This document shows positions 2,842-23,822 of a stretch of 64,000 bases of DNA, in pieces. Numbering within the stretch: position 1 is the stretch's first letter; every line of letters starts with the position of its first letter. A program made the translations under genes and the position numbers. The notes under the pieces were generated by a model that worked only from the letters and a program-made list of their open reading frames with translations, had not been told where the DNA came from and ran no database searches. Source of the stretch: Pseudomonas azadiae (lineage in GTDB: Bacteria; Pseudomonadota; Gammaproteobacteria; Pseudomonadales; Pseudomonadaceae). The DNA is taken from assembly GCF_019145355.1 (NCBI RefSeq), contig NZ_JAHSTY010000001.1:186001-250000 (forward strand), written 5' to 3'.

Positions 2842-3615
2842 TTACTGATATTGCGAGTACGGGTTGCCCTGGAACTGGTTGTTCTGCTGTGGCGCCTGTT
2901 GCTGGGCACCTGGCTGGCCGTACTGTTGACCCGGGATCGGGCCGAGGTTGACTTCCACACGACGGTTCTGCGCGCGACCGTTGACGTCGGCGTTGCTGGC
3001 GATCGGATTATCCGGGCCGGCACCGCGGGCGCTCAGGTTGGTCGGGCTCACGCCTTGGGAGGTCAGGTAATTGGCCACGCTCTGTGCACGACGTTGGGAC
3101 AGGTCCATGTTCAACTGGCGGCTACCCGTGCTGTCGGTGTAACCGACGATCTGGATAGTGTTCTGGTTGAACTGCTTGAGGGAGTTGGCCAGGTTGTTGA
3201 GCGGCTGGTAGAAGCTGCTGGCGATCGCATCCGAGTTGGTCGCGAAAGTGATGTTGCCCGGCATGATCAGCTTGATCTGGTCGCCCTGGCGCTGAACTTC
3301 CACACCGGTATTGGCCATGCTCTCACGCAGTTTCTTTTCCTGCTGGTCTGCGTAGTAGCCGTAGCCCGCAGCGCCGGCACCCGCCACCACCGCACCGATC
3401 AGCGCGCCCTTGCCACGGTGGTTGTGGTCGATGGCCGCACCGGCCAAGGCACCGGCCAGGGCCCCCAGGCCACCGTACTTGGCGGTCTTGCTCATACCGC
3501 CGGATTCATTGCTCGCCTGCCCCTGACCGCTGCCGTCATAGGGGTTAGGGGATGCGCAGCCGGACAACAAGGCTACGGCGGTAGCGACAACAAGCAGACG
3601 ACGCGAAGTGAACAT
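2842..3615 (-). CDS. OmpA-family lipoprotein (YiaD-like) with glycine-zipper segment
   Basis: This is a 257-residue protein. The N-terminal signal ends in LLSGC (Cys20), predicting an outer-membrane lipoprotein. Residues ~48-95 form a glycine-zipper region (GALAGALAGAAI, GAVVAGAGAAG), and ~110-225 an OmpA C-terminal peptidoglycan-binding domain with the signature YTDSTGS and the LSQRRAQSV helix. The C-terminal ~30 residues are Gln/Pro/Tyr-rich and low complexity. The architecture matches the YiaD/PA0833 type, which tethers the outer membrane to peptidoglycan. It is monocistronic and convergent with the BON gene. Confidence 0.88.
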   Translation of the reverse strand: MFTSRRLLVVATAVALLSGCASPNPYDGSGQGQASNESGGMSKTAKYGGLGALAGALAGAAIDHNHRGKGALIGAVVAGAGAAGYGYYADQQEKKLRESMANTGVEVQRQGDQIKLIMPGNITFATNSDAIASSFYQPLNNLANSLKQFNQNTIQIVGYTDSTGSRQLNMDLSQRRAQSVANYLTSQGVSPTNLSARGAGPDNPIASNADVNGRAQNRRVEVNLGPIPGQQYGQPGAQQQAPQQNNQFQGNPYSQYQ

Positions 3616-3858
3616 GAAGGGAGCTCCTACTTTTGCATTCTAAGGTGCAAAGGACATTGGCAATGGACCTGTGCCGAGTTTGGAACGCGACAAACGGTAA
3701 AAATTCCGTGGCCACACAAACCGTAGCAGACGCACGCTGAACACCACCTGAGTTTTTGCTACAAAGCGTGCCTGCCGTAGAGGATATGAGCCTGTGACGA
3801 CCCGCCTTTTGGTCACTACACCGGTTACCCGAGACGTAGCAATCGGCAGATCCACCAT

Positions 3859-5064
3859 TCACATCACCCCATCATACGTCCGAATGTTCTGCCGCAACGC
3901 CGCCAGAAAAGAGAAGGCATTCTCCACCCGCTCCCCCTCAAACCCCTGGTAGTAATTGTTCGCCGTCAACACCGTACCCGCACCGCGTTTGTTATCCGGG
4001 TGGAGGCAATAGGGAATCGATAAAAACCCACTGTCGAATGCGCTGAGTATCGCTTCGGACAAGTCGGCGTCACGCGCCAGCGTGCCTTCAATCAGTCGCC
4101 TTGATGCGTCCAGGATGCGCGCGTGCTCTTGCGCGTCGAACGGGACATCCGGCAACACACCCTTCGTGTGCAGGCAATAGCTGGCGTATTCCAATGCGGC
4201 GATGTTTTCTTCGATCCGAGGAATACGCCGTGACTCCACCGGCGTTTTTATGATCACGCGCTGCACGCCGGTGGATCGAATCATGCCGAGTGCATCGCCG
4301 GTGATCCGGCAAAACCCGCCCAGGGTCCGTGGAAAAAACCCCATGAACACGTAGCCGACGAAGTGGTAGCTGCCTGGCGCGAAGTATTCGCTGGCGAGTT
4401 GTTGCAAGGCCGTCACGGCGGCACGGTCCTGCACGGGCGAGGTGCCTTGGGCGTAGGAGAACGACAACGTCTTGATTCCGTGAGCGCGCAAAAACAAGCC
4501 CTCGAGAATGTTGAGCGCCACTAGAATGACCGGGTCGCACATCTGCCCCATCATGCAACCGGCGAAGCTCTCGATGTGGCTGTGCTCCACTCCTGCGCAA
4601 AGCACCTGACAGGCTTTTTCCCAGTGGCCGAAAGCCTCACGCAGCGGCGTACGGCTGTACGGCAGGCAATAGGAAATGGGCCCGCCCTCAGTGGTGGCCG
4701 AGCCGATTTCGACCATGCGCTCGAAGATGTGCAGCGGATCGGGCGAGCCATGGCGAATCTGCACCGGCAGGTGGTAGCGGGCATGAATCTGGTCGAGCAT
4801 CGCGCGGGTTTTCGCCGCTGGGTGATTCACGATCGGGTAGCCGTTAAGCATGGACGCGCTGTCGATCGCCCGTTGCGCCGCCTCAAGGTTATTCACTCGG
4901 GTGAACGCATCGAGGGTAATGGTGCATACGGTGTTCGCGCGACTGGCCGCCGTGGCGTCAAGCCCGGACTGCATCAGGCCGGGTTCGCTGAAGCCCATGC
5001 GCGGCTGGAGCACCGGGCCGTGCAGGTCAAACTGCTCAAGCACGTGGGTGTTGAAGTCGATCAT
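3859..5064 (-). CDS. Glutamate mutase large (epsilon) subunit, MutE/GlmE-like
   Basis: This 401-residue protein belongs to the methylaspartate (glutamate) mutase epsilon family, the TIM-barrel half of the adenosylcobalamin enzyme that interconverts L-glutamate and (2S,3S)-3-methylaspartate. Residues matching the substrate site known from the clostridial enzyme are in place: the arginine set R22 (LQPRMG), R56 (DAFTR) and R104 (QIRHGSPD), then E126, Y132 and Y136 in EGGPISYCLPY. The R22-R56 and R104-E126 spacings (34 and 22) equal those I recall for the clostridial protein. It is shorter than the ~480-residue clostridial form, mainly at both ends. It is third in an operon after the desaturase and the cobalamin-binding subunit (49-nt gap). 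No MutL reactivase or methylaspartase is nearby, so a biosynthetic role is more likely than fermentation. The substrate is inferred from conserved residues only. Confidence 0.85.
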   Translation of the reverse strand: MIDFNTHVLEQFDLHGPVLQPRMGFSEPGLMQSGLDATAASRANTVCTITLDAFTRVNNLEAAQRAIDSASMLNGYPIVNHPAAKTRAMLDQIHARYHLPVQIRHGSPDPLHIFERMVEIGSATTEGGPISYCLPYSRTPLREAFGHWEKACQVLCAGVEHSHIESFAGCMMGQMCDPVILVALNILEGLFLRAHGIKTLSFSYAQGTSPVQDRAAVTALQQLASEYFAPGSYHFVGYVFMGFFPRTLGGFCRITGDALGMIRSTGVQRVIIKTPVESRRIPRIEENIAALEYASYCLHTKGVLPDVPFDAQEHARILDASRRLIEGTLARDADLSEAILSAFDSGFLSIPYCLHPDNKRGAGTVLTANNYYQGFEGERVENAFSFLAALRQNIRTYDGVM

Positions 5065-5113
5065 GTCGGCAGGCCTTTTCCGGTCCCTGTGTTATCTGCC
5101 CCCGAGTACACGC

Positions 5114-5569
5114 TCATCGTGCGACCCGCTTTTCCAGGTAATGGGCAGGAAACAACTGTGCGCTGACGAGCGCCTGGAAGGCATCAAAACTGTTCGCCAC
5201 GCTGTCGTCGAACACCTCGTCAAACCCCGCGGCCCGAAGCGTATCGCTGTGCCGGGCGATGGTCTGGGCGTCGTTTTCAGTGCAGATTTTTCCACCGATG
5301 TAGAGTCCGTCGACGTGATGGGTCTCGCTGCGAATGCGCCGGGCGAGTTCGGCGCCCTCAAGGTAGCCGTGACCATTGACCGTGCTGATCACAACGATTG
5401 CGCAGCCATTGCGCTCAAGCCGCGCAATCACGTCGTCCATCGGCGTGTTGGGCCCCAGGTTTTCTACCTTGTAGCCCAGGTCATTGAGCAAGAATTCCAT
5501 GAACACCAGATTCCAGCTATGGGAGTCTGATGGCACGGTGCTGAGCAGTGCGGTTTTGTTGAACGTCAT
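5114..5569 (-). CDS. Glutamate mutase small (sigma) subunit, cobalamin-binding
   Basis: This is a 151-residue stand-alone B12-binding domain of the MutS/GlmS type, which carries adenosylcobalamin for the large subunit. The lower-ligand motif D15-x-H17 is present, but the usual D-x-H-x-x-G reads D-S-H-S-W-N, with Asn20 replacing Gly. The other cobalamin-binding segments are recognisable: S62-T-V-N-G-H-G (normally S-x-L...G) and Y90-I-G-G-K. The start at 5569 lies 14 nt after the desaturase stop, so the two genes are co-transcribed. Together with the large subunit downstream it would form the S2E2 mutase. Whether Asn20 affects B12 affinity is unknown. Confidence 0.85.
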   Translation of the reverse strand: MTFNKTALLSTVPSDSHSWNLVFMEFLLNDLGYKVENLGPNTPMDDVIARLERNGCAIVVISTVNGHGYLEGAELARRIRSETHHVDGLYIGGKICTENDAQTIARHSDTLRAAGFDEVFDDSVANSFDAFQALVSAQLFPAHYLEKRVAR

Positions 5570-5583
5570 CGTTAAAATCCCTT

Positions 5584-6708
5584 TTAAGTTTCTGTTCTGT
5601 TTGCGTAATACGGAAGTGCGTTCTGGAAGTTGCGAAAGTTGACGGTGACGGCGTTGATATAGCCCCAGTAATCGGCGTAGTTGGTCGGAAACGGTTTTGA
5701 GCCGTCGATCCTGTCGCGCTCGCGCGCGGTGATGTAATTGGGCCACTCTTTGGAACGGGGGCGCCGGTGGTGAAAGTCGTGGCACGGTGTATCGCCAACC
5801 ATCACGAACACGCGGATGAACAAATGGAAACCCAGCATTTTGATCAGCCAGACGCTGATGCAGGCGGTGCGGCGAACAGCGCCCGCAGCCTGCGGTATGC
5901 GTAACTCTTCACCAATGAATACGCCGGTCGTGCTTTCGCAGATGAAGTCGATACCGCGCCGTTCCAGGACCTCCACGCTGGGCCAGGTATGCTCGGCAGC
6001 CAGGCGGAACGTGGTGCTGATGTGATAGCCGGCGAACACCGGCACCACCCACGCCATGATGAAAAGATCGAAATGGCCCAAGGCTGCCGCCAGCAGACTG
6101 ATCGTGGCCCAGAAGCTTAGCGTCAGGGCGGCGACACGGCGGTTCGACGCGGTTGCGGTGCCCTTCACTCGGCTCCAGAACGAGCGCAGGATCGCCAGCG
6201 GTGACAGCGCCGTGCAGACCAGTTTGGTCCACATCGTGGTCACGCTGTCGGACGGTGTTAACCCCACCACCCCTTGCAAGTACGACAGGGTGTCGTCATC
6301 GTCGGTCAGCAGCGTTTTGGAACTGTGGTGCAGCGCGTGCTCGCGCTTATAGGTATCGAAAGGTTTGAGCATCAATACGCCGGAGATAATCCGGCCCACG
6401 GTCACGTTCGTTTCACGCTGTTCAAACACCATCTCATGGGCGCAGTTGTGGCAAATCATCACCTGCATCTGCTTGATACCGCCGGTGGCCAGTACAAAAC
6501 CCAGCACCCACAACATTACACTGCCGTGCACGTAACCGACGCCGGCCAACACCACGCCCGATGCAATCAATCCCGTTGAAACGAGGATATGGTGGATGGG
6601 TTTGAGCGTGCGAACCTGGTTAAGATCCTCAGGTAGAGGCTTGGCGGTCAGCCAGCTCAAAAATGGCTGTATGAACCCTGGAAGGGTGCGCATCGAGTTA
6701 CGTATCAT
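5584..6708 (-). CDS. Membrane histidine-box fatty-acid desaturase/hydroxylase-like enzyme
   Basis: This 374-residue membrane protein belongs to the PF00487-type superfamily of non-haem di-iron desaturases and hydroxylases. The three histidine boxes are intact: H87-N-C-A-H91, H124-A-L-H-H128 and H310-D-F-H-H314, with an extra A-E-H240. Hydrophobic segments lie at about 40-75, 105-115, 165-175, 195-235 and 285-305. The start ATG 6708 is preceded by AGAGGAAA; the open frame runs on to 6978 but would cross the divergent LysR gene. It is the first gene of the operon with the two mutase subunits. The usual substrates are acyl chains or sterols; here the partner genes suggest oxidation of an amino-acid-derived intermediate, which is inference. 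Confidence 0.8.
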   Translation of the reverse strand: MIRNSMRTLPGFIQPFLSWLTAKPLPEDLNQVRTLKPIHHILVSTGLIASGVVLAGVGYVHGSVMLWVLGFVLATGGIKQMQVMICHNCAHEMVFEQRETNVTVGRIISGVLMLKPFDTYKREHALHHSSKTLLTDDDDTLSYLQGVVGLTPSDSVTTMWTKLVCTALSPLAILRSFWSRVKGTATASNRRVAALTLSFWATISLLAAALGHFDLFIMAWVVPVFAGYHISTTFRLAAEHTWPSVEVLERRGIDFICESTTGVFIGEELRIPQAAGAVRRTACISVWLIKMLGFHLFIRVFVMVGDTPCHDFHHRRPRSKEWPNYITARERDRIDGSKPFPTNYADYWGYINAVTVNFRNFQNALPYYANRTET

Positions 6709-6765
6709 CCATGTTTCCTCTGCGGGTTCGCTCCATCGAAAAAAACTGTACCGTGGCCTCCCGTT

Positions 6766-6780
6766 ATTTCGAACAGAAAT
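6766..6780. promoter_or_regulatory. Candidate LysR-type operator between desaturase and regulator genes
   Basis: The divergent 112-nt intergenic region holds the inverted repeat ATTTC-GAACA-GAAAT, which includes a T-N11-A core typical of LysR-type binding sites. It sits 41 nt before the LysR gene start and 58 nt before the desaturase start, suitable for control of both directions. Seen only as a pattern. Confidence 0.45.
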
Positions 6781-6820
6781 ACGTGGGGATCGATTTTCCA
6801 TTTTTGAGTACGGCATCGAC

Positions 6821-7702
6821 GTGAACTGGGATGATCTGAAAGTTTTTATCTTCGTGGCCAAATCCAATAACGTGACCGAGGCGGGAAACTCGCTGAAAGT
6901 TTCGGCATCGACGGTGTCGCGCAAGATCGCCGCACTTGAGGATTCGCTCAGTACCGTGCTGTTCCTGAAAAAGACCAACGGCTATTTCCTGACGGAAGCC
7001 GGCAGAGCGTTGCTGCCACTGGCACTGGAGACCCAGGAGCGCTTCAAACTCATGGAGCGTCAGATGTCGCAGCCAAATGACCGGCTGGCCGGGCCGGTGC
7101 GCATCGATTGCCCGGAGCTGATGGGCACGCACCTGATCATTCCCGGGCTGGCGGACTTCCGTGCTCGATACCCCGAGATCAGCTTCGACTTCATCAATAC
7201 GGCGGTGTCGTCAAAACTCACGCAGAGCCATAGCGACATCATTATCCGACTGCGCAGGCCGGAAAACGGTAACTTCACCATGCGCCGGGTCGGCACGCTG
7301 ATGCAGGGGCTTTTCTGTTCCGACGGATATGCGGCCGCCAATAAACTGCCCGCGACGCCGGATGACCTGAAGGACCATCACCTGATTGGCTGGACCGAGG
7401 AGATGTCCTATATGCCGCTCGCGCAATGGCTCAATGAGGTGAGCGGCGAGCAGAAACCGTGGATGCGCGTGTCCAATCTCAATGCCCAGCTCAAGGCGGT
7501 GGAAGCTCACCTGGGGATCGCCGCGCTGCCAACCTATGTCGCACACCAGTCAGGCTTGCGCCAAGTCCTGGCCGACCGCCCGCTGCACAGCTCCGATATA
7601 TGGCTGCTGCGCAATCAGGCGACGCAGGGCGTGGGCCGCGTCGATCAAGTGGTGGACTACCTGACGGCGTTGTTCCAGAGCAAAACGGCAGAGATGCAAT
7701 AG
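6821..7702 (+). CDS. LysR-family transcriptional regulator
   Basis: This is a 293-residue regulator. The N-terminal winged HTH spans residues ~1-60 (NWDDLKVFIFVAKSNNVTEA, then SASTVSRKIAALE), followed by a co-inducer-binding domain from ~90 (GPVRIDCPELMGTHLIIPGL). The start is taken as GTG 6821 because V-NWDDLK aligns with the usual M-xWDDLR beginning; no good upstream ATG lies in the intergenic region, and extension to 6596 would run through the desaturase promoter. Subfamily members of this kind regulate adjacent divergent genes, here the desaturase-mutase operon. The effector is unknown. Confidence 0.85.
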   Translation: MNWDDLKVFIFVAKSNNVTEAGNSLKVSASTVSRKIAALEDSLSTVLFLKKTNGYFLTEAGRALLPLALETQERFKLMERQMSQPNDRLAGPVRIDCPELMGTHLIIPGLADFRARYPEISFDFINTAVSSKLTQSHSDIIIRLRRPENGNFTMRRVGTLMQGLFCSDGYAAANKLPATPDDLKDHHLIGWTEEMSYMPLAQWLNEVSGEQKPWMRVSNLNAQLKAVEAHLGIAALPTYVAHQSGLRQVLADRPLHSSDIWLLRNQATQGVGRVDQVVDYLTALFQSKTAEMQ

Positions 7703-7762
7703 CGTGCTGTGGATGAGGTAGTCCTGTAGTTGGAGGGCCTGGGCGTGGGTCATGCAACTTCC

Positions 7763-8401
7763 CTACAGCGGGCCGGTACGCAGGAAAATCCAAACCGCCA
7801 CCGCGATCAGCATCAATCCAAACACCGCGTTCTGGAACACCAGCAGCTTGGGCCGCGCCTGGATCAGCCTCTGCACGGACGAGCCCATCGATACCCAGAC
7901 GACATGGGCAAAAAAATTCAGCGAAATCAGCGCGGTGCTCAAGATCAGCACCGCGCTGCTGCTGGTCTCTCCTGAGGGCATGAAGGTGGAAAACATCACC
8001 AGCAGCATCACGATGCCCTGCACATTGCCCAATTGCACGACGATGCCGTCGCGAAACTGCAGGTGTATAGCTTTGTCTCCGGGCGCCTTCAGCGGACGAC
8101 GCAGCATGCGTACACCCAGCCACAGAATGTAGAAACTGCCGAGCACTTGCAGGACCCACACCAGCCGCGGGCTGTTCATCAGCGTGTGGTAAAGCCCCAG
8201 CCCGACCAGCACCGCCAACAGGAAGTAGGTGATGTCCAGGCCGACGATGAACCGCACCGAACGACGTACGCCGCTTTGTGCGCCGGATGTCGCAACCATC
8301 AAGTTGCCGGGCCCAGCACTAAGGGTCAGCGGGGCCATGGTTGACAGCCAAAGCAGCCAGTTGATGCTGAATATCTCTTGCACGTTGTTATCCTCGATCA
8401 C
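7763..8401 (-). CDS. LysE/RhtB-family amino-acid exporter
   Basis: This 212-residue inner-membrane protein has six predicted hydrophobic segments and the LysE/RhtB family signature near the N-terminus (TLSAGPGNLMVATSGAQSG, residues ~26-44). The family exports amino acids such as Lys, Thr and homoserine, and analogues of them. It is convergent with the LysR gene (60-nt gap) and has its own promoter region upstream of 8401. Its place beside the mutase-desaturase operon suggests it removes the pathway product or a toxic analogue, but physical adjacency is the only evidence. The start ATG 8401 gives the normal family length. Confidence 0.85.
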   Translation of the reverse strand: MIEDNNVQEIFSINWLLWLSTMAPLTLSAGPGNLMVATSGAQSGVRRSVRFIVGLDITYFLLAVLVGLGLYHTLMNSPRLVWVLQVLGSFYILWLGVRMLRRPLKAPGDKAIHLQFRDGIVVQLGNVQGIVMLLVMFSTFMPSGETSSSAVLILSTALISLNFFAHVVWVSMGSSVQRLIQARPKLLVFQNAVFGLMLIAVAVWIFLRTGPL

Positions 8402-8685
8402 GGCATGGACTGCACGTGCTCAAGTCTAATTGGCGGTCGCTTATAAGGTTATAGCGAAGAGCGCAAAGTGATATCCCATAAATGGGGTAAACGGGGCGGC
8501 GCTTGGGGTGACCAGCCAATATTCATCTGTGCTCCTGCGGGCGCTGTGGCATATTCGGCACAGCGTATGGGTAACGACAGTCCCGGCCCGAAAGGGAGCA
8601 CCGCCTGAGAACCAACTGCTAAACTTTCCCGGCGCCATTGCAGAACAATCCATGACCGCAACCATGCCGCGTTGGAGCGAGCCCC

Positions 8686-9276
8686 ATGGCGAATCAACTG
8701 ATCATTTGCGAGCACTGCGACTGCGTGTACGAGAAAGTCACGCTCGCCAAACATCAAAAAGCCGAATGCGTGCGTTGTGCCGGTGTGCTTCAGCGCTACA
8801 ACGGCCTGTCGGTGCAACAACGCCTGGCCTTGACCCTGACCGCCGCTGTGTTGTGGACCTTCGCCAACTTCTATCCGGTGATGAGTATCAGCCTGCAAGG
8901 CCTGAAAAATAGCGCCACCCTGTGGGATTCGGTGGTAGCGCTGAGCCTGGGGCCGATTACCTTTATTGCCTTGGTCGCCGCGATTTCCATCATCATCGCC
9001 CCGGTTTTCCAACTGTTGTTGCTGACGTGGGTGCTGAGTTTCGCCGTCTGGGGCAGACGCTCCCCCGCCTTCAAGCTGTGCATGCGCTGGCTGGAGGCCC
9101 TGAGGCCCTGGAGCATGCTGGAGGTGTGCCTGCTCGGCGCGATGGTGGCGGTGTTCAAGCTGGCCGGCATGCTGGATGTGATCCCCGGTATTGGCTTGTT
9201 TGCCCTGGCGGTGCTCAGCCTGTTGCTGATCCGCATTGCCGGGCGTGATGTACGCGACCTATGGGACACCGTATGA
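8686..9276 (+). CDS. pqiA: PqiA-type integral membrane protein, first of two (N-terminal half equivalent)
   Basis: This 196-residue protein starts with a rubredoxin-like zinc ribbon (C8-x2-C11 and C28-x2-C31) followed by four hydrophobic helices, the repeat unit of PqiA. In E. coli one PqiA of ~420 residues carries two such units; here the unit is a separate gene followed by a second copy. PqiA is the inner-membrane partner of the tunnel-forming MCE protein PqiB in inter-membrane lipid transport. GGAG is present 10 nt before ATG 8686. The stop overlaps the next start (ATGA). It is first in the pqiA1-pqiA2-pqiB-pqiC operon. Confidence 0.88.
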   Translation: MANQLIICEHCDCVYEKVTLAKHQKAECVRCAGVLQRYNGLSVQQRLALTLTAAVLWTFANFYPVMSISLQGLKNSATLWDSVVALSLGPITFIALVAAISIIIAPVFQLLLLTWVLSFAVWGRRSPAFKLCMRWLEALRPWSMLEVCLLGAMVAVFKLAGMLDVIPGIGLFALAVLSLLLIRIAGRDVRDLWDTV

Positions 9277-23572: not shown

Positions 23573-23629
23573 GGCCCGTTTGAAAAAGAACGCTTGCCGA
23601 ACGGGTTTTGCCTAGGCAGAATCCGCTCC

Positions 23630-23822
23630 GTCCTAGGGGAGTAGTCTCCCACGAGCGCCACGCTCGTCCGGCATACGTCAACATACTTGGTCAACAGACC
23701 ATGGCGTATGCGACCCAGGAGTCCGCACAGACGGACCGGGGTTTGACAAGACCTATGACACGCACACCTTACCCGGGGCGGGAAGGCTGTACGTGTCATA
23801 GCCGTGTCGACCCGCCCCTGGA
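23630..23822 (+). promoter_or_regulatory. yybP-ykoY manganese riboswitch
   Basis: The leader contains the conserved elements of this class in order: GGGGAGTAG near the 5' end (23637), GTTTGACAAGACCTATGACA (23741), ACCTTACCCGGGGCGGGAAG (23766), and a closing CCGCCCCT that can pair back with AGGGG. It ends about 10 nt before the UPF0016 gene, whose family is a common Mn2+-exporter partner. Mn2+ binding would be expected to turn expression on. Confidence 0.88.

What the first reader, a model, noticed from the sequence alone, without database searches (positions are those of the whole stretch)
3859..8401. Compact glutamate mutase + membrane di-iron oxygenase + LysR + amino-acid exporter cluster
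An operon of a PF00487-type histidine-box enzyme and both subunits of a B12-dependent glutamate mutase is divergent from a LysR gene and followed by a LysE/RhtB exporter. Fermentative partners (methylaspartase, MutL) are missing. Outside fermentation, mutase-made 3-methylaspartate is used for natural-product building blocks. The set reads as make, oxidise, sense and export a non-protein amino acid. I know of no described pathway with this gene content.
Basis: partly seen in the sequence, partly recalled or inferred. Interest (0 to 1): 0.85.

Follow-up and report, generated by a model that had tools for sequence, protein, structure and literature searches.

The report
Mutase–desaturase amino-acid cassette in Pseudomonas
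A small cluster of genes in a Pseudomonas looks like a compact recipe for making an unusual oxidised amino acid from glutamate and pumping it out, and some related strains that lack the recipe keep the pump and its regulator, which hints that the product is toxic to bacteria.

Summary
Window 3815-8505 carries a membrane di-iron (PF00487) enzyme, both glutamate-mutase subunits, a divergent LysR and a LysE exporter. A sixth gene, a quinone-oxidoreductase-like reductase (MDR), is present in 14 of 16 mutase-bearing loci but nearly all deleted here.

In 398 Pseudomonas genomes the desaturase and the close mutase ortholog occur in the same 11, all with LysE; the trio is also linked in Leisingera.

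The mutase keeps the glutamate-mutase active site and falls outside the catabolic type; the genome shows no MutL and no methylaspartase domain above cut-off. Best reading: glutamate to 3-methylaspartate, then oxidation and export. The product is unknown; 3-methyleneaspartate is one candidate.

Fourteen further genomes keep LysE+LysR without intact mutase or desaturase. Seven sit inside the mutase-bearing clade, two of them with remnants of the lost genes. This fits a self-resistance module, but a general exporter is not excluded.

My paper searches found no description of this gene set. All function is inferred; nothing was assayed.

The parts
3815..8505 (.). whole cassette: the block shared with P. 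poae L010, which has other flanks
   Evidence: blastn L099 vs L010, homology ends at L099 5816 and 10506; window flank genes gave no tblastn match in the 16-21 kb of L002-L010
3859..5064 (-). glmE-like: AdoCbl-dependent glutamate mutase E subunit, natural-product type
   Evidence: PF06368 212.8 bits; residues equivalent to R100, R149, E171, Y177, Y181, K326, E330 kept; AF2 model pLDDT 91.0, best PDB match glutamate mutase 1cb7_B TMq 0.82
5114..5569 (-). glmS-like: B12-binding S subunit, motif DSHSWN instead of DCHAVG
   Evidence: PF02310 35.1 bits; DxHxWN form also in a Streptomyces PKS locus and a Methylobacter locus and in L053
5584..6708 (-). PF00487 membrane di-iron oxygenase/desaturase, putative oxidase of the mutase product
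   Evidence: PF00487 66.6 bits; H87, H91, H124, H127, H128, H240, H295, H310, H313, H314 invariant in 30 of 30 aligned; AF2 pLDDT 94.9
6765..6781 (-). palindrome TATTTC-N5-GAAATA, likely LysR operator in the divergent gap (the T-N11-A rule for LysR sites is recalled)
   Evidence: 0-1 mismatches within 120 bp upstream of LysR in 18 of 18 main-clade loci; 4-6 mismatches at best in the 11 more divergent loci
6821..7702 (+). LysR-family regulator, divergent from the oxygenase operon
   Evidence: PF00126, PF03466; start set by comparison with orthologs
7703..7753 (-). place of a deleted MDR (quinone-oxidoreductase-like) gene; only the start and a short scar are left
   Evidence: L010 6375-7348 has no counterpart; intact MDR is PF08240/PF00107 in L010
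7763..8401 (-). LysE/RhtB-family exporter
   Evidence: PF01810 70.8 bits; match at E 1e-40 in 25 of 398 Pseudomonas genomes
8402..8505 (-). upstream region of lysE, conserved
   Evidence: judged by eye on an alignment of 29 loci, weaker in L106-L112

Best explanation
The cassette makes and exports a free, oxidised non-protein amino acid. Step 1 (inferred from active-site conservation): GlmES with AdoCbl turns L-glutamate into (2S,3S)-3-methylaspartate. Step 2 (inferred from operon structure and relatives): the PF00487 membrane di-iron enzyme oxidises it with O2, by desaturation or hydroxylation. The bold specific candidate is 3-methyleneaspartate, a Michael acceptor whose racemate is cited as an aspartate-aminotransferase inhibitor. 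Step 3: LysE exports it. LysR, through a conserved palindrome, probably controls the operon and itself. The MDR reductase, lost here, goes with production (14 of 16 mutase-bearing loci, 1 of 7 near losers) and is probably an accessory tailoring or protective step inside the producer. LysE+LysR form a self-resistance module that outlives the biosynthetic genes. The presence and linkage of the genes are shown; substrate, product, toxicity and regulation are inferred.
For: Oxygenase (E 1e-30) and close GlmE ortholog in the same 11 of 398 genomes, all 11 with LysE. Linkage in Leisingera, GlmE 60% and oxygenase 65% identical, with an MDR, a LysR (38%), an EamA exporter and a group II PLP decarboxylase. 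Active-site residues invariant in the 120 listed homologs aligned, of 1468 found. Outside the catabolic mutase type, in the branch with a Streptomyces PKS-type locus; VinH/VinI of vicenistatin supply 3-methylaspartate (PMC11284099, passages). AdoCbl supply: CobO/BtuR family match, 214 bits. Two of three plasmid relatives of the oxygenase sit beside AzlC-type exporters. Exporter+regulator present where biosynthesis is lost, LysE dN/dS 0.00-0.18 in eight pairs covering seven losers.
Against: No substrate or product is shown. PF00487 is the fatty acid desaturase family, and PDB sequence and fold searches gave nothing informative for this enzyme. Seven more divergent genomes carry LysE+LysR with no trace of mutase or oxygenase, so the pair may have a general export role. 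Four of the seven near losers (L102-L105) also show no remnant. Losers were found by searching for LysE, so losses that also removed LysE were not counted. The palindrome is not found upstream of lysE. A class-wide scan found only the own genome (1 of 369).
Confidence: 0.6

Rival explanations
1. The oxygenase acts first, on glutamate or another amino acid, and the mutase rearranges an already oxidised amino acid; the product is not derived from 3-methylaspartate as such.
For: The oxygenase gene is first in the operon. Its best NCBIfam match is the L-arginine hydroxylase GntB, far under cut-off (49.3 of 380 bits).
Against: The mutase active site is as in glutamate mutase. Gene order does not tell reaction order.
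Confidence: 0.18
2. LysE+LysR is an older general amino-acid export pair (as LysE/LysG), next to which the mutase-oxygenase genes were recruited; its presence where the biosynthetic genes are missing is not resistance to this product. This rival touches only the resistance part of the best explanation.
For: Seven genomes in a separate clade have only the pair, with no remnant found. A LysG-LysE pair is described (PMC5648196, title and start of abstract in the listing).
Against: In the 15 Pseudomonas mutase-bearing loci the pair is part of the block. In the seven near losers the pair and the palindrome are kept, and L045 and L098 hold remnants of lost biosynthetic genes.
Confidence: 0.35
3. The PF00487 enzyme is a lipid desaturase and the mutase serves an unrelated or catabolic purpose; the neighbourhood is coincidental.
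For: PF00487 is the fatty acid desaturase family.
Against: Same 11 of 398 genomes; linked in Leisingera; no MutL match and no methylaspartase C-domain match above cut-off in the genome.
Confidence: 0.04

Closest known systems
VinH/VinI glutamate mutase of vicenistatin biosynthesis (and similar macrolactam clusters)
   Same: Mutase used for biosynthesis; a Streptomyces plasmid locus that looks of this kind (AMP-binding protein, type III PLP enzyme, GlmS, GlmE, PKS) falls with the window opposite the two catabolic mutases
   Different: No adenylation enzyme, carrier protein or PKS among the genes of the cassette; a membrane di-iron oxygenase and an amino-acid exporter instead. Vicenistatin facts from PMC11284099 passages; no VinI sequence was compared
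AMB and FVG antimetabolite clusters of Pseudomonas
   Same: Small clusters for a free non-protein amino acid with LysE-type transporters (PMC4357302 passages; PMC8064604 passages); the FVG authors infer repeated horizontal transfer
   Different: AMB uses NRPSs and Fe/2-oxoglutarate oxygenases, and its paper has 0 occurrences of 'glutamate mutase' and 'desaturase'; the FVG paper was not searched for these words
GntB of guanitoxin biosynthesis
   Same: Transmembrane enzyme of a free-amino-acid pathway (PMC10367076 passage), named L-arginine gamma hydroxylase in NCBIfam NF041365; that it is of the PF00487 type is recalled
   Different: 49.3 bits against a cut-off of 380
Catabolic methylaspartate pathway (GlmES, MutL, methylaspartate ammonia-lyase)
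   Same: The same two mutase subunit families
   Different: E. coli and Gemmobacter plasmid loci carry methylaspartate ammonia-lyase, and E. coli also glutamate mutase L; their GlmE score 864.5 and 688.4 bits against 137.2 here

Membership tests
Catabolic glutamate mutase (TIGR01503 / methylaspartate pathway) | GlmE above the equivalog cut-off (390.1 bits) | tested here: not met
   137.2 bits; catabolic controls 864.5 and 688.4
Catabolic glutamate mutase (TIGR01503 / methylaspartate pathway) | MutL and methylaspartate ammonia-lyase in the genome | tested here: not met
   MutL no match; PF07476 one partial match 25.7 bits, under cut-off 27; the N-terminal methylaspartase domain was not searched
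Glutamate mutase, natural-product type | E subunit on the natural-product side of the family tree | tested here: met
   32 rows chosen by me (26 of 120 listed homologs, the window, 5 from loci), rooted on two catabolic enzymes; the other 30, a Streptomyces PKS-type locus included, on the other side, 100/100. Three such enzymes also fail TIGR01503 (153, 185, 166 bits)
Glutamate mutase, natural-product type | Substrate-binding residues of glutamate mutase | tested here: met
   R100, R149, E171, Y177, Y181, K326, E330 equivalents invariant in the 120 listed homologs; R22 taken as R66 by motif only. Roles of R66, R100, R149, E171, Y177 from PMC10947579 passages; roles of Y181, K326, E330 recalled
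Glutamate mutase, natural-product type | DxHxxG cobalamin-binding motif of the S subunit (recalled) | tested here: not met
   DSHSWN; D and H kept, G replaced, as in the Streptomyces and Methylobacter S subunits
Glutamate mutase, natural-product type | Converts L-glutamate to 3-methylaspartate | not testable with these tools
   needs enzyme assay
Membrane di-iron PF00487 enzyme | Histidine boxes | tested here: met
   HxxxH, HxxHH and HxxHH invariant in 30 of 30 aligned: the window and 29 of the 39 proteins found
GntB arginine hydroxylase | NF041365 cut-off 380 bits | tested here: not met
   49.3 bits
LysE exporter with LysR-type regulator | Pfam LysE above cut-off and linked LysR | tested here: met
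   70.8 bits, cut-off 25.6; pair linked in the 29 Pseudomonas loci compared
Self-resistance exporter | Confers tolerance to the cluster's product | not testable with these tools
   only the retention pattern is known

The most novel reading that the evidence does not exclude
A previously undescribed class of bacterial antimetabolite: a free, Michael-acceptor amino acid such as 3-methyleneaspartate, made in two steps from glutamate by a B12 radical mutase and a membrane di-iron desaturase, carried on a compact cassette whose exporter and regulator persist in related strains as a resistance module after production is lost.
Probability: 0.25. Interest if true: 0.85.

Novelty: new variant of a known kind. 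Interest (0 to 1): 0.62.

Why it matters
If right, three core genes suffice to turn glutamate into an oxidised branched amino acid without an assembly line. It would pair B12 radical chemistry with a membrane di-iron oxygenase acting on a small amino acid, and give a natural system for watching producers become resistant non-producers in one genus. The small size makes every step directly testable.

Tried and rejected
Rejected: glutamate fermentation or the methylaspartate pathway. Rejected: a cobalamin riboswitch in the window (whole-window Rfam scan at gathering threshold gave only a manganese riboswitch at 23623-23744). Rejected after checking: MDR as part of the retained resistance module, because only 1 of 7 near losers (L098) keeps it.

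Not fruitful: PDB sequence and fold search for the oxygenase. Repeats within window 3600-8700 (only short pairs). An empty site in relatives: 11 of 29 genomes searched, the own one included, matched the right flank; in the four relatives fetched for this, homology to the window begins at 8681-8695, so nothing of the left flank is beside it. Class-wide scan at E 1e-40 (1 of 369, the own genome). Scan of Leisingera's family at E 1e-60 (1 of 295, Leisingera itself). The lysE upstream region lacks the palindrome (best 4-6 mismatches in 160 bp). The random control (19 of 5000 windows of 120 nt with 2 mismatches or fewer) was drawn from the same loci and so includes the motif itself.

Paper searches for the gene set, related enzymes, methyleneaspartate and methylaspartate mutase in Pseudomonas brought up no description (one search listed 40 of 96 papers, 15 of 18); subscription papers are mostly not held.

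Weak points in my own numbers: I dropped the L098/L010 MDR value and the L106/L108, L109/L108 and L111/L109 pairs (LysE dN/dS 0.21-0.53, LysR 0.30-0.81) as probably out of register because of gaps; I did not check that. Pairwise dN/dS also includes time before the loss. In one search only 7 candidates were scored in nearly all listed genomes, so 25 of 398 may be a lower bound. Gene maps are longest ORFs, not a gene finder. MFS, VapC, GNAT and PqiA names are my reading of sequences, not a search.
Full report
What is there. The window lies in a genome of 6.1 Mb that I take as Pseudomonas: the genome listed as same genus with a 19910-base contig (G136) matches the P. poae record L010 in contig length. 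Comparison with orthologs sets the LysR start at the GTG at 6821, leaving a 112-bp gap to the oxygenase. LysE lies beyond LysR and is convergent with it, so it does not follow the mutase operon.

A missing sixth gene. In other Pseudomonas a quinone-oxidoreductase-like MDR gene (PF08240/PF00107; nearest NCBIfam NADPH:quinone reductase, 258 of 348 bits) sits between LysE and LysR. It is present in 14 of the 16 distinct mutase-bearing loci compared and absent from the window and from L006. In the window nearly the whole gene is gone, leaving its start and a short scar at 7703-7753.

Conservation together. In 398 Pseudomonas genomes GlmE matched in 23: 11 close orthologs (75-100% identity, own genome included), 11 genomes with a 43-46% identical relative in a different cluster (one of them split over two contigs), and one remnant (G205). 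The oxygenase matched at E 1e-30 in 12 of 398: the same 11, plus one remnant (G247). LysE matched at E 1e-40 in 25 of 398, including all 11. Leisingera ANG59 has oxygenase, GlmS and GlmE (65, 58 and 60% identity) with an MDR (46%), a LysR (38%), an EamA exporter and a group II PLP decarboxylase. The decarboxylase scores below cut-off for known types (best 205.9 of 900 bits, diaminobutyrate decarboxylase). Wider scans found little: 1 of 369 genomes of the class (the own one) and 1 of 295 of Leisingera's family (itself). In the protein database 14 GlmE/oxygenase pairs, down to 45-46% GlmE identity, share the same longest-contig length, which suggests but does not prove linkage. The block has sharp ends against P. 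poae L010, whose flanks differ, so it seems to move; I noticed no mobility gene beside it (ORF list only, no search) and no clear end repeats in the window.

The mutase. The residues matching Clostridium R100, R149, E171, Y177, Y181, K326 and E330 are kept and invariant in the 120 listed homologs aligned, of 1468 found. PMC10947579 (passages) gives R66, R100, R149, E171 and Y177 as substrate-binding; R22 is taken as R66 from its motif only. The AlphaFold model (pLDDT 91.0) matches glutamate mutase best (1cb7_B, TMq 0.82). The enzyme fails the catabolic equivalog (137 of 390 bits), as do three other non-catabolic enzymes tested (153, 185, 166 bits), while two catabolic ones pass. A tree of 32 chosen rows puts it with the other 29 non-catabolic rows opposite the catabolic pair, 100/100. 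The GlmS motif is DSHSWN rather than DCHAVG, but DxHxWN is also found in a Streptomyces PKS-type locus, a Methylobacter plasmid locus and L053, so it seems to mark the branch rather than a defect. In vicenistatin biosynthesis such a mutase supplies (2S,3S)-3-methylaspartate and disruption of vinI abolishes production (PMC11284099, passages). The genome has a CobO/BtuR-type adenosyltransferase match (214 bits), no MutL match and no methylaspartase C-domain match above cut-off.

The oxygenase. The histidine boxes are invariant in 30 of 30 aligned rows and the model is confident (pLDDT 94.9), but PDB comparison was uninformative. The best NCBIfam match is the arginine hydroxylase GntB (49.3 of 380 bits). 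Three plasmid records carry relatives (25.5-28.5% identity): in Klebsiella and Paraburkholderia it stands beside AzlC-type amino-acid exporters, in Agrobacterium vitis about 3 kb from an EamA transporter and near other oxidases. This favours an amino-acid substrate but is three loci only.

Exporter and regulator outlive production. Fourteen genomes carry LysE+LysR without intact mutase or oxygenase. Seven lie inside the mutase-bearing clade of a LysR+LysE tree. Within that clade the tree needs 7 changes of state; over all 29 rows it needs 8, at least 6 forced by well-supported branches, and the label is no more clustered than chance (83 of 500 shuffles as low). A single origin of the seven is rejected (p-AU 1e-108, with the group chosen after seeing the tree). 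Two of the seven keep remnants of lost biosynthetic genes: L045 has the start of the oxygenase joined to the end of GlmE, and L098 the first 214 bp of the oxygenase plus an intact MDR; L101 keeps an MDR tail; L102-L105 show no remnant. Breakpoints of L103 and L105 are nearly identical, and the left ones of L101 and L104 lie close by, so some of these may share one deletion spread by recombination; my own count is at least four independent losses. MDR does not behave like the exporter: only L098 of the seven keeps it, so it goes with production. LysE dN/dS between losers and near mutase-bearing relatives is 0.00-0.18 (eight pairs, seven losers), against 0.05-0.06 in four pairs of bearers, consistent with continued selection. 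The palindrome TATTTC-N5-GAAATA upstream of LysR is kept in 18 of 18 main-clade loci, losers included. Against a resistance reading: the other seven genomes form a separate clade with no remnants, LysE was the search query, and the palindrome is not found upstream of lysE.

How it most likely works. Glutamate to 3-methylaspartate by GlmES, oxidation by the membrane di-iron enzyme, export by LysE, control by LysR. The position of the oxidation is open. Desaturation to 3-methyleneaspartate is a bold but testable guess: beta-methylene-DL-aspartate is cited as an aspartate aminotransferase inhibitor (reference titles in PMC12162812), membrane di-iron enzymes desaturate (recalled), and an MDR reductase might act on such a double bond in the producer. 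A carboxylate is, however, a poor substrate for known quinone-oxidoreductase-type enzymes (recalled), which weighs against that last part.

Known or new. Free amino-acid antimetabolites with LysE exporters are known in Pseudomonas: AMB (PMC4357302, passages, where the authors speculate that AmbA serves resistance) and FVG (PMC8064604, passages). The combination found here was not described in any paper that my searches brought up. I file it as a new variant of a known kind: a glutamate-mutase-dependent natural-product cluster with a new tailoring enzyme and no assembly line.

Noticed in passing
L046-L055 (unnamed Pseudomonas genomes): A second glutamate-mutase cluster, in 11 of 398 Pseudomonas genomes (10 loci fetched; families read on L049 as example): luciferase-like monooxygenase, two ATP-grasp ligases (one above cut-off for NF005543, with a far-under-cut-off match to dapdiamide A synthase), GlmS, GlmE, a PanB-like enzyme, a GntR/aminotransferase regulator and a conserved 498-aa protein with no Pfam or NCBIfam match. 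Looks like a peptide natural-product locus.
   Followed up: partly
L062 12892-17246: Methylobacter plasmid with GlmS, GlmE, a protein annotated asparagine synthetase A, a hypothetical protein of about 505 aa (not compared with the 498-aa one) and an EamA transporter; its place in the GlmE tree is unresolved.
   Followed up: no
L005 4917-5004 and 11250-11381, with matches in L103, L105, L006: Stretches of about 90-130 bp, 75-85% alike, recur upstream of LysE and downstream of GlmE in this group of loci; they could favour deletion or movement of the block.
   Followed up: no
L101, L104: A gene that reads like a VapC toxin (by eye, no search), with a possible antitoxin in L104, lies upstream of LysR where sister loci have the mutase operon.
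   Followed up: no
L009 / L100: Leisingera version carries a group II PLP decarboxylase and an EamA exporter, with no LysE match, so its end product may be a decarboxylated amine or beta-amino acid.
   Followed up: partly
window 23623-23744: Manganese riboswitch (yybP-ykoY), 54.5 bits; ordinary.
   Followed up: no
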